DNA of 5,631 nucleotides from Chloroflexota bacterium. Lineage in GTDB: Bacteria > Chloroflexota > Limnocylindria > Limnocylindrales > CSP1-4. A program made the position numbers and the translations under genes. Below the pieces are notes generated by a model. The model was not told the DNA's origin, did no database searches, and saw nothing but the letters and a program-made list of their open reading frames with translations. The first letter of the stretch is position 1; each line of letters starts with the position of its first letter. This document shows positions 1-5,591 of this stretch, piece after piece. The stretch spans positions 665 through 6,295 of the forward strand of contig JAKAMV010000620.1 of assembly GCA_021812735.1 (NCBI GenBank), read 5' to 3'.

Positions 1-1
1 C

Positions 2-988
2 CCGGGCGACGACCAGCGCGGGATGATCCCCGCAACGCGGTTCCTCAAGGAGGTCAACCTCGGCGAGAACCCGGTCCTGACCGGAGACGTGATCGTCGTC
101 GGCGGCGGGTCCACCGCGATGGACGCGGCGCGTTCGGCCAAGCGCTCCGGCGCCGCCAGCGTGTCGATCGTCTACCGCCGCGGCCGCGTCGACATGCCGG
201 CCCAGGCCGAGGAGGTCGAGGCCGCAGAGCGCGAGGGCATCGCGATCCTCGAGGGCCTCGCCCCCAAGGAGGTCGTGGGTCGCGACGGCGACGTCGTGGC
301 GCTGCGGTGCGAGGTGACGAAGCCGGGCGCGAAGCCGGCCGACGGCGGTCGCACGCCGTGGACGCCGACGGGCGAGTCCCGGGAGCTCCCGGCGACTGCG
401 ATCCTCGTCGCCATCGGCGAGGAGCCCGACCCCTCGATCCTTCCCGAAGGCGCGGGCATCGAGGTCAGCGGCTGGGCCGGCATCGTCGCCGATCCCAACA
501 CGCTGGCCACGGGCCGCGCCGGCATCTTCGCCGGTGGCGACGTCGTCAGCGGGCCGAAGACCATCATCGAGGCCGTGGCCGCCGGTCGGCGCGCCGCCGG
601 CTCCATCCACGAGTACCTCTCGGGAGCCCGCGACGGCGAGGCCGAGATCATGCGCACCGTCAGGGTGCACACACCTGCCGAGGCAACGCTCCGGCTCGAC
701 ATCGCCGACCGGCCGCGCGTCCACGCGCCGCTCCCGGTCGTTGACACGGCCAACTTCAAGGCCACGCAGGAGGGCTTCGCGGAGGCCGCGGCGAGGGCCG
801 AGGCGTCCCGCTGCTTCCGCTGCGACGCCGTCTACGGATGTCCTTCCGTCCAGGTCGCGAAGGGTCGCGGCCCGGCTGACTCGCGCATCGGCGGCCCCTC
901 CGCGGCCCACGCGCCGGTCGCCGCAGCGACGTCGCTCACCCCCGCCACACCCCCGTCCCGCCAGCTCAACCAGGGAGGAGCCCAGTGA
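2..988 (+). CDS. GltD-like FAD/NAD(P)-binding oxidoreductase, C-terminal part (5' end outside window)
   Basis: This is the C-terminal portion of a flavoprotein of the glutamate synthase small-subunit (GltD)/pyridine-nucleotide-disulfide oxidoreductase superfamily, which moves electrons between NAD(P)H, FAD and Fe-S partners. The frame is open to the left edge (PGDDQRG before the ATG at 23), so the true start lies upstream and the first FAD-binding motif is missing. Counting from that ATG, visible motifs are the NAD(P)-binding VVGGGSTAMDAA (25-36), YRRGRVDMPAQAEEV (51-65, typical of GltD-like proteins), LVAIGEEPD (128-136) and the FAD-binding GIFAGGDVVSGPKT (167-180). A C-terminal CxxC-x5-C cluster (C264, C267, C273; CFRCDAVYGCP) could hold part of an Fe-S centre. 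It is followed by an Ala/Pro-rich tail with no clear fold. True glutamate synthase is unlikely, because no large subunit is seen and the next genes are membrane proteins. The likely role is an electron-transfer subunit of a larger redox complex; its substrate is unknown. Confidence 0.88.
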   Translation, partial: PGDDQRGMIPATRFLKEVNLGENPVLTGDVIVVGGGSTAMDAARSAKRSGAASVSIVYRRGRVDMPAQAEEVEAAEREGIAILEGLAPKEVVGRDGDVVALRCEVTKPGAKPADGGRTPWTPTGESRELPATAILVAIGEEPDPSILPEGAGIEVSGWAGIVADPNTLATGRAGIFAGGDVVSGPKTIIEAVAAGRRAAGSIHEYLSGARDGEAEIMRTVRVHTPAEATLRLDIADRPRVHAPLPVVDTANFKATQEGFAEAAARAEASRCFRCDAVYGCPSVQVAKGRGPADSRIGGPSAAHAPVAAATSLTPATPPSRQLNQGGAQ

Positions 989-1593
989 ACGCTGACCAGG
1001 TCTCAGGTCTCTTCGGCGCCGGAGAGGCGTTCGTCGAGGGGACCATCGCCGCCGCCCTCGTGATCCTCTGGATCCTGACCGTGGCGCTCCACGTCGCCCG
1101 ACCGTACATGGCCAGGACGACCGGCAAGTTCACGCTCCGGCTCGGCGCGGACCTGTGGTGGATCATCTATGTCGGCCTGCGCGACATCATGCTCCTGCAG
1201 GTCTTCCTCGGCTCGTTCATCTTCTTCTACCCCGACGTGGTGAAGGCGCAGAACCTGCCCGTCACCGGCGGCCTCGCGGCCGTGTGCGCCTTCGCCGCGC
1301 TGCTGATCAAGCTGATGACCAAGGGCGACGCGGACCTCATGTGGATGCGCGTGCAGGTGAGCCTGATCGGCCTCGGCGCCGCGCTCTACCTGGTGCCCTA
1401 CCTGTTCGGCGTCCAGGCCGTGGGGCTGAACGGGTCGCGCCTGCTGCCGCTGGCCCAGTCGCTGAACACCGCCACGAACCCCGACCTCGCCCTTCCGCTG
1501 TGCTACATCTCCGCGGCCCTGACGGGCCTCCTGGGGATCGTCGCCGTCGCCTACAACCTCCGGCTGTCGATGCGGCAGCCGAAGGCCGCCTGA
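985..1593 (+). CDS. Uncharacterised five-helix membrane protein, paralogue A
   Basis: I do not recognise the family. The 202-residue protein has about five hydrophobic segments (roughly 19-39, 66-84, 94-112, 121-142, 170-192). The GTG start at 985 overlaps the upstream TGA (GTGA, 985-988) and has a strong Shine-Dalgarno GGGAGGAG at 973-980, four bases before it, which supports this start and translational coupling. Notable residues are ALHVARPY (34-41) at the end of helix 1, with the only histidine of the protein (H36), then TLRLGADLWW (50-59), RD (66-67) and a YPDV motif (82-85) after helix 2. The following gene encodes a paralogue that shares all of these. One histidine per chain does not match the paired ligands of typical di-haem cytochrome b or NarI-type subunits. 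Coupling to the oxidoreductase suggests a membrane anchor or quinone-side partner, but that is inference. Confidence 0.85.
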   Translation: MNADQVSGLFGAGEAFVEGTIAAALVILWILTVALHVARPYMARTTGKFTLRLGADLWWIIYVGLRDIMLLQVFLGSFIFFYPDVVKAQNLPVTGGLAAVCAFAALLIKLMTKGDADLMWMRVQVSLIGLGAALYLVPYLFGVQAVGLNGSRLLPLAQSLNTATNPDLALPLCYISAALTGLLGIVAVAYNLRLSMRQPKAA

Positions 1594-2497: not shown

Positions 2498-3229
2498 ATG
2501 TGCGAGCAGTTCATCGCCCGGGCCGGGGAGCCGTTCCGCCTCGACGCGCTGTGGCCCCTTGCGGAGCGCCTCGAGCGGTATGGCCTCGCGGGTTTCGGCT
2601 GGGGCGCTTCGTGGGTGGGCAGCGACGGCCGCCTCCACACCCACCGCGACGTCCGCGCCTTCCGCGATGACCCGGCCCGCGACGAGGTCGGCGCCAACGA
2701 GACCACCGTCGCGCTCGTCCACCTCCGTCGCCCGTCGCGCCTGTCCACGCTCCAGCTGCCCGACACCCAGCCCTTCGAGGACCCCGCCGGCCGCTTCGCC
2801 TTCTCGCACAACGGGGACCTGCGCGACTTCCGGGCCGCGCGCGCCCGATACCGCAAGGCGGGTCGAATCCACGGCCGGGCCGACAGCGAGGTGGGCCAGC
2901 GCTGGCTCGAGGACGCCTGGTCGGACGCAGAACCGGTGGCCCATCTGCTGGGCGCCCTCCACGACGAGTTCGGCGGCGAGGCCAACCTCGCCGTCCTGAC
3001 GCGCGACGGCACGCCGCACCACTACGCGGGCAACCCCCAGAATCCCGTGTTCACGTTCCGCCTGGGCGCGATCGGCATCGCAGCGACGGCCATCTACTCG
3101 ATCGACCGCTCGGTGTTCCGTTACTGCGCCCCGGGCGCGACCGAGCGCGCGATGGTGCGCCTCCACACGACGGTCGAGCTGGATGCCGCCGGTCGGCCGA
3201 CGGAGGCCGCGAGGCCGTCGAGGCGGTAG
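2498..3229 (+). CDS. Stand-alone class II glutamine amidotransferase
   Basis: This is an Ntn-hydrolase glutaminase domain of the class II (GATase2, YafJ/EgtC-like) type, which releases ammonia from glutamine. Removal of Met1 exposes Cys2 (MCEQF) as the catalytic nucleophile. Further family marks are a GWG turn (34-36), VHLRRPS (74-80, with the substrate-binding Arg of the HxR element), the oxyanion-hole motif SHNGDL (103-108), and RADSEVG (127-133), which corresponds to the SD(S/T)E element. At 243 residues it is the glutaminase alone, with no synthase or sugar-isomerase domain, so the ammonia acceptor must be on another protein or it may act as an amidohydrolase. EgtC is a possible comparison, but no ergothioneine genes are seen nearby. 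It appears to be a single-gene transcription unit: hairpins lie on both sides and its own -10-like box precedes it. The fold and catalysis are well supported; the substrate is not known. Confidence 0.88.
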   Translation: MCEQFIARAGEPFRLDALWPLAERLERYGLAGFGWGASWVGSDGRLHTHRDVRAFRDDPARDEVGANETTVALVHLRRPSRLSTLQLPDTQPFEDPAGRFAFSHNGDLRDFRAARARYRKAGRIHGRADSEVGQRWLEDAWSDAEPVAHLLGALHDEFGGEANLAVLTRDGTPHHYAGNPQNPVFTFRLGAIGIAATAIYSIDRSVFRYCAPGATERAMVRLHTTVELDAAGRPTEAARPSRR

Positions 3230-3234
3230 GGGAG

Positions 3235-3257
3235 TCGCCGGCTGCGGGGGCCGGCGA
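3235..3257. terminator. Hairpin between formerly convergent genes, possibly bidirectional terminator
   Basis: TCGCCGGC (3235-3242) pairs perfectly with GCCGGCGA (3250-3257) around a seven-base loop, five bases after the amidotransferase stop. Without the insertion sequence just to the right, it would sit between two convergent genes and could serve both. There is no T-run on either side, so intrinsic termination is plausible but unproven. Confidence 0.5.
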
Positions 3258-3260
3258 GCC

Positions 3261-3263
3261 TCA
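3261..3263. repeat. Left target-site duplication TCA
   Basis: TCA abuts the left inverted repeat and is repeated directly after the right one (4635-4637). A 3-bp TNA duplication is characteristic of the IS427/IS1031-type branches of IS5. An alternative reading is a 5-bp duplication CTCAG (3260-3264 and 4634-4638) with 15-bp repeats; the sequence alone does not fully separate the two. Confidence 0.7.
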
Positions 3264-3279
3264 GGCCCTGTGAACGAAA
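3264..3279 (+). repeat. Left terminal inverted repeat of the insertion sequence
   Basis: GGCCCTGTGAACGAAA matches the complement of 4619-4634 at all 16 positions; the match stops at the next base inward (G versus C). It is the presumed transposase binding and cleavage site. The spacer from here to the transposase start (3280-3345) holds no other clear signal. Confidence 0.9.
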
Positions 3280-3345
3280 GATCCCGCACGGAGTAGCCCT
3301 TCCCGTGCCAGAGAGCCTGTCGCGGGAGAGCGGCAGACTGCGCCC

Positions 3346-4116
3346 GTGAGCAGCCTGATCGAGCTGACGGACGCGCAGTGGGCGCTCGTCGAGCACATCT
3401 TCGACCCGCGGGGCGGTCGCGGACGCCCGGCCGTGTATGACCGGCGCGAGATCGTCAATGCCCTGCTGTTCCTCGCCCGCACGGGCTGCCAGTGGCGCTA
3501 CCTGCCGGACCGCCCCCCCTGGCCCCCCGTGTGGCAGCAGTGGCGTCGGTGGCGCGACGGCAAGGGCCAGGTGTGGCGGCGGGCGATGGCGCTGCTCGGC
3601 GCGGAGGTGCGCCTTCACCACGGGCGGCAGGCGACGCCCTCGATGGTCATGATCGACGGCCAGACCGTGAAGGGCGGACGGGCCGGCCCCACGTTCCGCA
3701 ACGCCGGCGGGCGGGGCGGTCGGACCGTCGGAGCGAAGCGGACGATCCTCGTCGAGATCATGGGCCTCCCGGTGGCGGCCCGCGTGGATCCCGCGAAGCC
3801 GCACGACGTGCGCGTCGGGCGCGAGCTGCTCGGCGAGCGCCTCGGCGACCTCCCGCGGGTCCAGGCGGTCGTCGCCGACGGCGGCTACAGGGGACTGGCG
3901 AAGCTCGCGGCGCGCAGGCAGGTGCGGCTGGACATCAAGGCCCCGCCGAAGGGGTCGAGCGGGTTCGTCCCCATCGACCCGCTGTGGCGCGTCGAGCACG
4001 CGTTCGCCCAGCTCGGCCGGTGGCGCAGGCTGTCGCGCTGCTACGAGGGCACGCCCGAGAGCGCCCGCGCCTGGCTCGAAGTCGCCGCATTCGGCTACCT
4101 GCTCGGCCGGCTCTGA
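3346..4116 (+). CDS. IS5-family DDE transposase
   Basis: This 256-residue transposase catalyses cut-and-paste or copy-and-paste movement of the surrounding element. The N-terminal part has the IS5-type LTDAQWALVE (7-16), followed by NALLFLARTGCQWRYLP (38-54), typical of the DUF4096/helix-turn-helix region that binds the ends. The catalytic core has D104 (MIDGQTVKGG), D178 (VVADGGYRG) and E217 (RVEHAFAQLGRWRRLSRCYE). The last motif reads VEHAF where IS5 proteins usually have VERTF or a close variant. The length is normal for a single-ORF IS5 transposase, with no frameshift or premature stop. The GTG start at 3346 is the only reasonable one in frame, since no ATG, GTG or TTG lies upstream inside the element. 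There is no close Shine-Dalgarno sequence; a GGGAGAG at 3324-3330 is rather distant. It ends 12 bases before the stop of the convergent lipoprotein gene. Confidence 0.95.
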   Translation: MSSLIELTDAQWALVEHIFDPRGGRGRPAVYDRREIVNALLFLARTGCQWRYLPDRPPWPPVWQQWRRWRDGKGQVWRRAMALLGAEVRLHHGRQATPSMVMIDGQTVKGGRAGPTFRNAGGRGGRTVGAKRTILVEIMGLPVAARVDPAKPHDVRVGRELLGERLGDLPRVQAVVADGGYRGLAKLAARRQVRLDIKAPPKGSSGFVPIDPLWRVEHAFAQLGRWRRLSRCYEGTPESARAWLEVAAFGYLLGRL

Positions 4117-4128
4117 CCCCGCCCCGCG

Positions 4129-4545
4129 TCAGGGCGCGACGACCAGCGTGCCCGGGCACGCGAGCCAGGTCCCAGCGCCGTCGATCTCGCCGCCGCCGAT
4201 CGACACGCGGTCTCCCTCGTGCGCCAGGACGGTGCCGCTCTGGTCGACGACCGCGAGGCGGCCGCCGTCATGGCGTGCGGAGAAGCCGTTGGGCCAGATC
4301 ACCTGGCGCGCCTGCCCCTGCTCGTCGCGCAGCCGGATGCCGGCGTCCCCGTCCCTGACGAGGGTGCCGGTGACGAGGGCCGCCATGCACGCGGTCGCAG
4401 TCCCGGCCGGCTGGGGCTGCTGCTGCTGCGTTCGGAGCGCGATGGCCCCGGGGGTCGCGGTCGCGCCGGAGGGAGCCGATGGGCCAGCCGCGCACGCCCC
4501 CACGAGCGTCGCCGCCGCGAGTGCGAGCAGTGCCCGAGCGAACAT
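4129..4545 (-). CDS. Small predicted lipoprotein, passenger of the insertion sequence
   Basis: This 138-residue secreted protein has a short lipoprotein signal peptide (MFARALLALAAATLVGAC) with lipobox VGAC and lipidated Cys18. Residues 19-50 form a low-complexity Ala/Pro/Ser/Thr linker with a QQQQPQP run. The C-terminal part, about 52-138, looks like a small beta-rich domain: GTLVRDGDAGIRL, VIWPNGF (82-88), LAVVDQSGTVLAHEGDRVSIGGG (97-119) and WLACPG (127-132). Two cysteines (C53, C130) could form a disulfide at its base. This resembles small uncharacterised lipoproteins of GC-rich bacteria, and I assign no biochemical function. The ATG has a strong AGGAGG seven bases upstream. The stop lies 12 bases from the transposase stop, in the convergent direction. 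Carriage between the ends of an IS is unusual, and it is unclear whether it helps the element or the host. Confidence 0.8.
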   Translation of the reverse strand: MFARALLALAAATLVGACAAGPSAPSGATATPGAIALRTQQQQPQPAGTATACMAALVTGTLVRDGDAGIRLRDEQGQARQVIWPNGFSARHDGGRLAVVDQSGTVLAHEGDRVSIGGGEIDGAGTWLACPGTLVVAP

Positions 4546-4552
4546 CCCACTC

Positions 4553-4558
4553 CCTCCT
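4553..4558 (-). promoter_or_regulatory. Shine-Dalgarno site (AGGAGG) of the lipoprotein gene
   Basis: The minus strand reads AGGAGGGAGTGGGATG. The spacing of seven bases fixes the start at 4545 and argues that the passenger is really translated. A CAGAAT hexamer further upstream (plus-strand 4576-4581) could be a weak -10, but I see no convincing -35. Confidence 0.7.
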
Positions 4559-4618
4559 GACCCGGATCAGACGCCATTCTGACGCCGCGGCGCGGCTCGC
4601 GGTTGCCTCAGTTTCAGG

Positions 4619-4634
4619 TTTCGTTCACAGGGCC
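4619..4634 (-). repeat. Right terminal inverted repeat of the insertion sequence
   Basis: TTTCGTTCACAGGGCC is the exact complement of the left end. The subterminal sequence (CCTCAGTTTCAGG just inside) differs completely from the left subterminal sequence, so only the 16-bp tips are shared. Confidence 0.9.
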
Positions 4635-4637
4635 TCA
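4635..4637. repeat. Right target-site duplication TCA, also the glycosyltransferase stop codon
   Basis: This TCA duplicates 3261-3263. On the minus strand it is TGA, in frame with the glycosyltransferase gene to its right, and forms the stop codon of that gene. Confidence 0.7.
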
Positions 4638-5591
4638 GTCGCCGATCTCGATCGACCGCCGCGCCGCGCTCGGCCTCCCCCGCCGGCTCGCCTCGTGCGC
4701 CGGGGCGTGGAGGCCCAGGAACACGTTGACGCCCGCGCTCAGCCGCGCCCGCGCCCGGGTCGCCGTGGCCGATGGCGCCGTCCGGAACGCGCGTCCCCAG
4801 AGCCCGGCCCGCGCCAGCGCCCGCCCGAACGCCTGCTGCCAGGTCGACGGCCGCAGGAACGCGAACGGGTGCTCGAGGCGCCACCACCAGGGCACTGCGG
4901 CCCAGACATACACGAGGTAGTCGGCGCGGATGGGCCGCTGCGTGAAGCCGAACAGCACCTGGAGCTGGATGATCGTGAGCGGCAGCATCGCGAGCGAGAG
5001 CAGGCCGGCCAGGGCGAGCCACACGAGGCCGTACGCGCGTGCTCGCGGCGGCAGGACCAGCCACAGGAACGCCGGCACCCACTTCATCCACGTCGCGAGG
5101 CCCCAGACCAGCCCGCCCAGCCGCCCGCCGAGGAACTGCGCCCCGAACAGCACCACCGCAAGGAGCAGGTTGACGTTGCCGGTGTCGATGTTCGCCTCGA
5201 TCGGGATCCAGAGGATCGCCGCCAGGATCGCCGTTGGCAACGGGCGGCGCGCGTACGCCCAGCGGATGGTCCACAGGAGCAGCAGGAGCGAGGCGCCCCG
5301 CCACGCGAACCAGGCCACCTCCCAGGGCAGCATCGCCCAGGGGATGAACAGCGGCAGCATCCAGGGGGCGTAGACGTAGGGCAGGAACGGCCCGGTGGGA
5401 TGGTAGGGATCGCCACCGTCGAGCCACAGGCGCACAGCCGCCCAGTAGGCGCGGGCGTCGGCACCGGCCACGTCGCCCCGGGCCCAAATGGCGGCGCAGG
5501 CCGCCGCGAACAGGACGATCAGAATGGCCATTGCCGCGATCCGACGCCGGTCTCGAAGCCGAAGCGCCTCCCGGCGGATGGCGCGCCGCAC
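4635..5591 (-). CDS. GT87-like integral-membrane glycosyltransferase (5' end may lie outside window)
   Basis: This polytopic membrane protein resembles the GT87 (DUF2029) polyprenyl-phosphate-sugar-dependent glycosyltransferases, which transfer mannose or related sugars to lipids or glycans on the outer face of the membrane. A basic N-terminus and first helix (about 18-37) are followed by GADARAYWAAVRLWLDGGDPYHPTG (43-67), where D45 is the candidate catalytic acid and GDPY is typical of the family. Next come the Pro/Trp-rich YVYAPWMLPLF helices, then the family-like DTGNVNLLL (136-144) and GLVWGLATWMKWVPAF (160-175) with its membrane Lys170. About eight helices are visible, and the last 60 residues are a charged Arg/Ala tail. 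At 318 residues it is shorter than many relatives (about 380-450). The GTG at 5591 is the first start visible, but the frame is open to the window edge and no Shine-Dalgarno sequence is seen, so the start is uncertain. ATG at 5531 is an alternative. Its stop codon coincides with the insertion-sequence target duplication. Confidence 0.8.
   Translation of the reverse strand: MRRAIRREALRLRDRRRIAAMAILIVLFAAACAAIWARGDVAGADARAYWAAVRLWLDGGDPYHPTGPFLPYVYAPWMLPLFIPWAMLPWEVAWFAWRGASLLLLLWTIRWAYARRPLPTAILAAILWIPIEANIDTGNVNLLLAVVLFGAQFLGGRLGGLVWGLATWMKWVPAFLWLVLPPRARAYGLVWLALAGLLSLAMLPLTIIQLQVLFGFTQRPIRADYLVYVWAAVPWWWRLEHPFAFLRPSTWQQAFGRALARAGLWGRAFRTAPSATATRARARLSAGVNVFLGLHAPAHEASRRGRPSAARRSIEIGD

What the first reader, a model, noticed from the sequence alone, without database searches (positions are those of the whole stretch)
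3264..4634. IS5-family element carrying a lipoprotein gene between its only terminal repeats
Seen directly: perfect 16-bp inverted repeats and matching TCA flanks enclose not only the transposase but also an intact minus-strand lipoprotein ORF with a good Shine-Dalgarno site. IS5 elements normally encode only transposase. Because the duplication flanks the whole 1371-bp unit, it appears to have moved as one piece, making it an IS with a passenger gene. A surface lipoprotein is an unexpected cargo compared with resistance, regulator or methylase genes.
Basis: partly seen in the sequence, partly recalled or inferred. Interest (0 to 1): 0.72.

Follow-up and report, generated by a model that had tools for sequence, protein, structure and literature searches.

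The report
Cargo-swapping IS5-type element carrying a lipoprotein
A tiny bacterial jumping gene that normally carries only its own enzyme here carries a small secreted-protein gene as well, and close relatives in the same bacterial class carry different genes in the same slot, so it looks like a miniature gene shuttle.

Summary
A 1371-bp unit (3264-4634) is bounded by perfect 16-bp inverted repeats and TCA duplications and encloses an IS5-family transposase and an intact convergent lipoprotein gene. A related genome has the uninterrupted site: the same neighbours tail to tail, no lipoprotein, one TCA. So the unit entered as one piece and the lipoprotein is cargo.

The wider result goes beyond the finding. 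Of 30 transposase loci in one Chloroflexota class (the G001 copy included), 21 are bounded on both sides; 16 of these 21 carry extra DNA between the transposase stop codon and the right repeat. Elements with about 80-91% identical transposase DNA carry unrelated cargo; homology stops at the stop codon and, where it resumes, covers only the last 17-22 bp. Cargo includes seven lipoproteins, SnoaL, VanZ, DUF2652 and a HipBA-type pair. SnoaL recurs with transposase DNA and right end at three loci, two of them incomplete, and is under purifying selection.

I file it as a transporter IS with a modular cargo slot; ten searches of an open-access library showed no IS5-family example. How cargo is exchanged, and what the lipoprotein does, are unknown.

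The parts
3261..3263 (.). left copy of the TCA target duplication
   Evidence: sequence; single copy in the empty site of G009
3264..3279 (+). left terminal inverted repeat, GGCCCTGTGAACGAAA
   Evidence: same end in L042
3346..4116 (+). IS5-family DDE transposase, 256 aa, GTG start
   Evidence: NF033580 157 bits (cut-off 110), PF13340, PF01609
4117..4618 (.). cargo slot: from the transposase stop codon to the right repeat, variable among relatives
   Evidence: homology between relatives with different cargo ends within -10 to +22 bp of the stop codon
4129..4545 (-). cargo gene: 138-aa predicted lipoprotein, distantly DUF5818-like, convergent with the transposase
   Evidence: 44 homologues; lipobox VGAC at residue 18; some relatives score PF19135 below its cut-off, the window protein itself has no Pfam hit
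4550..4558 (-). Shine-Dalgarno-like AGGAGGGAG ahead of the lipoprotein start
   Evidence: sequence
4619..4634 (-). right terminal inverted repeat
4635..4637 (.). right copy of the TCA duplication; read on the minus strand it is the TGA stop codon of the GT87 gene
   Evidence: sequence and ORF list
2498..3229 (+). left neighbour, GATase_6 gene, not interrupted
   Evidence: PF13522; adjacent to GT87 in empty-site relatives
4635..5591 (-). right neighbour, GT87 glycosyltransferase gene, not interrupted
   Evidence: PF09594; a match in 84 of 126 genomes of the order

Best explanation
It is a transporter insertion sequence: an IS5-family element whose transposase cuts at the two 16-bp ends and so moves everything between them, including a host-type lipoprotein gene. 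SHOWN: it inserted as one 1371-bp unit at a CTCAG site between two convergent genes; close relatives have the same left end, transposase and right end but unrelated cargo in the slot between the transposase stop codon and the right end; one cargo (SnoaL) recurs together with transposase DNA and right end at three loci. INFERRED: the transposase acts on both ends in cis; cargo is exchanged when the right end is replaced by that of another copy lying beyond a host gene, or by recombination between two elements followed by transposition; the lipoprotein is made from a start close to the right end and exported. Its convergent transcript may also damp the transposase by antisense. The exchange mechanism and the lipoprotein's role are not established.
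For: Perfect ends and duplication; empty site; 21 of 30 loci bounded on both sides, 16 of the 21 with identical 3-bp duplications and 16 of the 21 with 339 bp or more right of the aligned transposase; a right end of 13/16 or better arose in 0-6 of 300 shuffles per element for 15 of the 16 cargo-bearing elements. In 32 within-clade pairs with different slots, transposase-end DNA is 73-92% alike and homology ends at -10 to +22 bp from the stop codon; 17 of the 32 share 17-22 bp again at the right end. L049 and L068, two loci of one genome, are 90.7% identical over 929 bp through the 3' part of the transposase, SnoaL cargo and right end; L056 in another genome is 83-85%. SnoaL dN/dS 0.17-0.30 by NG86.
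Against: G001 holds one copy of the lipoprotein-bearing element, so unit mobility of this cargo rests on the insertion alone. Of the three SnoaL loci only L049 is complete; L068 lacks the left part of its transposase and L056 is cut by the contig end. 9 of 30 loci were not bounded on both sides; 5 of 21 bounded ones lack identical duplications; 5 of 21 have no cargo-sized slot. dN/dS for the two lipoprotein pairs is 0.75 and 0.78, near saturation, so it gives no support for selection there. Cargo of L044, L045, L047, L053, L055 and L063 has no known homologue. No sigma-70 promoter or terminator was seen.
Confidence: 0.88

Rival explanations
1. Ordinary IS beside a host lipoprotein gene: the IS ends after the transposase, the lipoprotein is native to the locus, and the far repeat is coincidence or a second solo end.
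For: Lipoproteins of this family look like common host genes: 46 of 126 genomes of the order have a match, and 28 of 30 loci read show no such transposase within the stretch held.
Against: Empty site in G009 without lipoprotein; none of 29 other GT87 loci read has a lipoprotein match; no closer right end; the right repeat is perfect.
Confidence: 0.02
2. One-off hitchhiker: this element trapped a host gene by accident, and the cargo has no role and no wider pattern.
For: One copy only in G001; no other element with the same lipoprotein and a near-identical transposase was reachable; dN/dS of the lipoprotein pairs is uninformative.
Against: 16 of 21 bounded elements carry cargo, several clades show replacement at the same boundary, and SnoaL cargo is under purifying selection.
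Confidence: 0.08
3. The cargo is kept for the element's own sake: a convergent gene whose transcript represses the transposase, or an addiction-like gene, so its identity matters little.
For: 12 of 16 bounded cargoes run against the transposase; a HipBA-type pair is cargo in L121; cargo identity is freely replaced.
Against: 4 of 16 cargoes run with the transposase; 5 of 21 elements do without cargo; purifying selection on the SnoaL protein implies that the protein matters in that case.
Confidence: 0.25
4. Assembly artefact: conserved transposase DNA made assemblers join unrelated sequence.
For: The relatives come from genomes in many contigs.
Against: Two contigs that differ by 2.5% show the same structure; 16 of 21 bounded elements have matching duplications on both sides; the changes fall at the stop codon, inside the elements, rather than at their ends.
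Confidence: 0.03

Closest known systems
Transporter IS (tIS), named for IS1 and IS1595 families after Siguier 2009 (that paper not seen; passages of PMC3129680 and PMC8496243 seen)
   Same: One transposase, one pair of terminal repeats, passenger gene unrelated to transposition inside.
   Different: IS5-family transposase; cargo often small lipoproteins; cargo is replaced at one fixed boundary among close relatives.
IS231/MIC231 subgroup of the IS4 family (PMC2266710, passages seen)
   Same: Modular elements with extra DNA and diverse passenger genes between the same ends; [quoted passage not shown]
   Different: IS231 extra DNA lies between the left end and the transposase; here it lies between the transposase stop codon and the right end. 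Different transposase family and hosts.
ISDsp3, an IS6-family tIS of Dehalococcoides (PMC7986276, passage seen)
   Same: An IS with one passenger gene of unknown function; Dehalococcoides is also a Chloroflexota genus (recalled).
   Different: IS6-family transposase, a single member, no cargo exchange described in the passage.
Ordinary IS5-family elements such as ISRm4-3, ISRtr3, ISAli1
   Same: Nearest named plasmid relatives of the transposase, about 37% identical.
   Different: They normally encode transposase alone (recalled). Length by itself is no mark: passages give 850-1200 nt in Ralstonia (PMC7371123), 800-1500 bp in phytopathogens (PMC11092175) and 1518 bp for ISHsp1 (PMC3606827).
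Mobile insertion cassettes and composite transposons
   Same: Cargo between IS ends.
   Different: Cassettes lack a transposase and composites have two IS copies; this element has one transposase and one pair of ends.

Membership tests
IS5 family | transposase matches a curated IS5 model above cut-off | tested here: met
   NF033580 157 bits, cut-off 110; PF13340 and PF01609 above cut-off
IS5 family | short terminal inverted repeats and a short TNA-type duplication (recalled for the IS1031/ISL2-like groups) | tested here: met
   16/16 repeat, TCA duplication; 16 of 21 bounded elements with identical TNA duplications
IS5 family | named subgroup (IS427, IS1031, ISL2, ISWpi1) | not testable with these tools
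   ISfinder is not held; nearest names from plasmids only
IS5 family | no gene besides the transposase (usual, recalled; not strictly defining) | tested here: not met
   intact 138-aa lipoprotein ORF inside the ends
transporter IS (tIS) | passenger gene unrelated to transposition inside one pair of ends with one transposase | tested here: met
transporter IS (tIS) | passenger moves with the element | tested here: met
   empty site for the whole unit; SnoaL cargo with transposase DNA and right end at three loci, two of them incomplete. Active transposition not tested.
IS231/MIC231 | IS4-family transposase with passengers between left end and transposase | tested here: not met
   IS5 model; cargo on the right
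composite transposon | two IS copies flank the cargo | tested here: not met
   one transposase ORF in the unit and one pair of ends
DUF5818 (PF19135) | passes the Pfam cut-off of 27 bits | tested here: not met
   no hit for the window protein; among eight relatives scanned the best was 26.3 bits

The most novel reading that the evidence does not exclude
This IS5 lineage has a dedicated cargo slot: its transposase tolerates, and some process repeatedly replaces, whatever lies between the transposase stop codon and a roughly 20-bp movable right end. That would make it a minimal gene shuttle that spreads short genes, above all exported lipoproteins, among uncultured Chloroflexota.
Probability: 0.4. 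Interest if true: 0.78.

Novelty: new variant of a known kind. Interest (0 to 1): 0.62.

Why it matters
It shows an IS family usually thought of as transposase-only working as a modular carrier with replaceable cargo, in a group of little-studied bacteria. It offers natural sets of closely related elements with different cargo, which make the question of how insertion sequences capture genes directly testable. Automatic annotation would be expected to end such elements at the transposase and to file the cargo as an unrelated hypothetical protein.

Tried and rejected
Whole-genome search of the window's own assembly was not possible: none is held. The near-identical MAG G001 was used instead.

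Viral contigs gave no relative of the lipoprotein. Plasmids gave no record with most of the 1371 bp and only transposases under 60% identity. A sample of 400 phylum genomes gave matches in 12, each already met in the class scan.

A sigma-70 promoter and a terminator were looked for in 3200-4720 and not found; such scans say little in GC-rich DNA. The lipoprotein model (mean pLDDT 74.7, all-beta core) had no PDB match at E 0.001 or better; the first ones listed were RNA polymerase stalk-type subunits at query TM 0.37 or less, so no function is claimed. PADLOC gave only one weak match for it, E 0.076.

I considered that the two DUF5818-like cargoes (L041, L061) descend from one capture. The tree puts L061 with L017, a gene with no such IS seen beside it (91/97), and L041 in a clade with P0001-P0007, P0009 and P0011, so two captures are likelier, though L061 has a long branch.

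Left out of the 30 loci: L133 and L141, another IS5 group without clear ends, and L144 and L145, two further transposase fragments seen only by tblastn. L152 is the L067 locus again. L065 was not counted as bounded: its inner end bases match at 15/16 but its outermost bases and flanks do not. The end search gave two extra points to ends with matching triplets, which favours matching duplications where several ends compete, without that bonus, found the same ends for most elements. One search ended in a script error and was partly redone. In one search the figures on the own side of L060 (transposase stop codon lost) and L068 (stop codon not found in the frame used) are not meaningful and were ignored.

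Full report
Observation. The window holds exactly two matches to GGCCCTGTGAACGAAA at up to three mismatches, at 3264-3279 (+) and 4619-4634 (-), both perfect; shuffles give 0.03 on average. TCA flanks both. Between them lie an IS5-family transposase (3346-4116, +; NF033580 157 bits, cut-off 110) and, tail to tail with 12 bp between stop codons, a 138-aa lipoprotein ORF (4129-4545, -; lipobox VGAC at residue 18; AGGAGGGAG ahead of its ATG). The finding is confirmed as written.

Same locus elsewhere. The window's own genome is not held. Contig JAJZRG010000008.1 (MAG Chloroflexi bacterium SKS1.bin7, handle G001) carries the same locus, 97.5% identical over the window; the IS differs by 2 of 1371 bases and the lipoprotein by none, while 108 of 136 mismatches lie in the first 988 bases. 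G001 has one full copy of the element and one other related element without cargo-sized DNA (L062).

Empty site. GT87, the right neighbour, has a match in 84 of 126 genomes of G001's order. I read 30 of those loci, up to 1.5 kb on each side. The G001 locus has the IS and the lipoprotein; none of the other 29 has a match to either within the stretch held. GATase_6 was found in 11 of the 29, and in 7 (L074, L077, L078, L085, L088, L097, L099) it lies tail to tail with GT87 within about 65 bp; in the other 18 no GATase_6 match lay in the stretch. The closest, G009 (L074; 90% and 86% protein identity), reads GAGCTCAGTCGCCGATCTCGA where the window's joined flanks read GAGCCTCAGTCGCCGATCTCGA, with a single TCA. 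So the 1371-bp unit is an insertion, and the lipoprotein came with it. The right TCA copy is also the GT87 stop codon, so neither neighbour was broken.

Relatives. The transposase matched in 19 of 126 genomes of the order at E 1e-40 and in 20 of 177 genomes of the class at E 1e-60; in a sample of 400 phylum genomes 12 matched, each already found in the class. Merging two pieces of one frameshifted copy (L058, L066) gives 30 loci, the G001 copy (L041) included. An end search bounded 20 of the 30 on both sides, and a longer fetch bounded one more (L050, as L121), so 21 of 30. Of these 21, 16 have identical 3-bp duplications and 5 do not (L044, L048, L049, L051, L064). The search favoured matching triplets, which did not, had placed most of the same ends. 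Of the 17 flanks printed, the TNA is preceded by C in 16 and followed by G in 15, so the target is CTNAG-like. For 15 of the 16 cargo-bearing elements I ran shuffles: a right end of 13/16 or better arose in 0 to 6 of 300. Of the other 9 loci, 3 are cut by contig ends (L052, L056, L057) and 6 are truncated, degenerate or without recognisable ends (L046, L059, L065, L067, L068, L069); 4 of the 9 (L046, L056, L057, L068) do have a right end.

Cargo. Of the 21, 5 have 192-221 bp right of the aligned transposase (L048, L051, L062, L064, L071) and 16 have 339 bp or more. I assign the 16 as follows: lipoproteins with a lipobox in L041 (the window's element), L043, L044, L055, L058, L060 and L061; proteins with hydrophobic stretches, judged by eye, in L042, L045, L047 and L053; no assignment in L063; SnoaL_3 (E 1.8e-9) in L049; DUF2652 (4.5e-22) in L054; VanZ (1.2e-12) in L070; an HTH protein plus HipA (HipA_C 3.4e-48) in L121, a 2619-bp element with TGA on both sides. 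Twelve of the 16 run against the transposase, four with it. Two pairs of cargo are related to each other: L041 with L061 (E 6e-13) and L058 with L060 (3e-9). L046, bounded on the right only, carries a plus-strand lipoprotein-like ORF. Limits: L044, L053, L055 and L063 had no Pfam match and no homologue search; L045, L047 and L061 were not run against Pfam, and the first two not against anything else outside this set. Whether lipoproteins are over-represented against the hosts' short genes was not tested.

Replacement at a fixed boundary. L041, L042 and L043 form a supported clade (100/100) with 88-91% identical DNA up to the transposase end and three unrelated cargoes. L045, L046, L055, L057 and L060 (about 80-90% identical) have five different cargoes. 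L044 and L050 (89%) have a lipoprotein and a HipBA-type pair. One search compared 36 within-clade pairs; 4 share their slot (L048-L051 and the three SnoaL pairs). In the other 32, homology ends between 10 bp before and 22 bp after the stop codon; in 17 of the 32 it resumes for the last 17-22 bp, and in 15 no right-end match passed the threshold. L048 and L051, both without cargo, are alike end to end, while L062 and L064 differ even in their short slot.

Unit mobility and selection. L049 and L068, two loci of genome G028, are 90.7% identical over 929 bp through the 3' part of the transposase, SnoaL cargo and right end; L056 in G082 is 83-85% in two blocks. Only L049 is complete: L068 lacks the left part of its transposase and L056 is cut by the contig end. 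SnoaL dN/dS is 0.30, 0.20 and 0.17 (NG86) for the three pairs, so this cargo protein is conserved; for the two lipoprotein pairs (L041-L061, L058-L060) it is 0.75 and 0.78 at near-saturated distances, which says nothing either way. L110 (G077) looks like a decayed element: the last 42 residues of a transposase, an L043-type lipoprotein tail to tail with it, and a 13/16 right end.

Where cargo comes from. The window's lipoprotein has 44 homologues, and its family matched in 46 of 126 genomes of the order. Of 30 such loci read, only G001's and G011's lie beside this transposase; one more had a lone end-like match (L030). The L042 cargo matched in 5 of 126 genomes and the L043 cargo in 14 of 126, own genome included; of the 18 loci read, apart from the two elements themselves only L110 showed a transposase piece. 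A tree puts the L061 cargo with L017, a gene with no such IS seen beside it (91/97), rather than with the window's, which suggests separate captures, with the caution that branches are long. These point to host genes as the source. Whether the closest lipoprotein homologues (P0002-P0016) are IS-borne could not be seen.

How it probably works. The transposase recognises both ends and moves what lies between; that follows from the anatomy and the empty site. Cargo exchange is inferred: either a new right end beyond a host gene is used after loss of the old one, or two elements recombine and the hybrid transposes. Recombination between terminal repeats is documented for an IS5-family element, ISWpi1 (PMC3004938, passages seen). 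Convergent cargo may damp transposase expression by antisense. The lipoprotein model is all-beta with no clear structural relative, and no function is claimed.

Known and new. Transporter IS elements are an established notion (passages seen of PMC3129680, PMC9330008, PMC7986276, PMC8496243). The nearest precedent is IS231 in the IS4 family, with passengers between left end and transposase, called in 2008 a modular aspect not yet observed in other IS families (PMC2266710, passage seen). Ten searches of an open-access library, seen as listings, and passages of eleven papers showed no IS5-family lineage with exchangeable cargo; subscription papers and ISfinder were not searched. I file it as a new variant of a known kind.

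Noticed in passing
L072 (Miltoncostaea oceani plasmid NZ_CP064357.1), 1931-4269: A 54% identical IS5-family transposase is followed by a TnpB-type RNA-guided endonuclease gene, with 13/16 matching ends around both; the flanking triplets (TCA, TAA) differ, so it may be an IS5 element with TnpB as cargo.
   Followed up: partly
L121 (G066:C39), 3752-6370: An element of this lineage carries an HTH gene and a HipA-like gene, a toxin-antitoxin-type pair, with TGA on both sides.
   Followed up: partly
L110 (G077:C123), about 1380-2160: A decayed element keeps a lipoprotein ORF without stops but only the last 42 residues of the transposase, as if the cargo had been left behind for the host.
   Followed up: partly
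window 1-988 against L001: 108 of 136 mismatches to the otherwise nearly identical MAG fall in the first 988 bases, which looks like a recombined tract between strains.
   Followed up: no
window 985-1593 and 1607-2266: Two neighbouring ORFs of about 200 aa, membrane proteins by eye, share repeats at 71% DNA identity (D2, D3) and match no Pfam or NCBIfam family; they follow an oxidoreductase of the glutamate synthase small subunit type.
   Followed up: no
L071 (G159:C7): The left and right ends are of two different subtypes (GGGCCTGTGGCCGAAA and GGGCCTGTGTATGAAA) with matching TAA flanks, as if an element had been put together from two.
   Followed up: no
L002 (JAUJNA010000001.1), 5356-6675: A domain like the window's lipoprotein sits inside a 439-aa ORF beside what looks by eye like a sigma-factor gene, so the domain is not restricted to small lipoproteins.
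   Followed up: no
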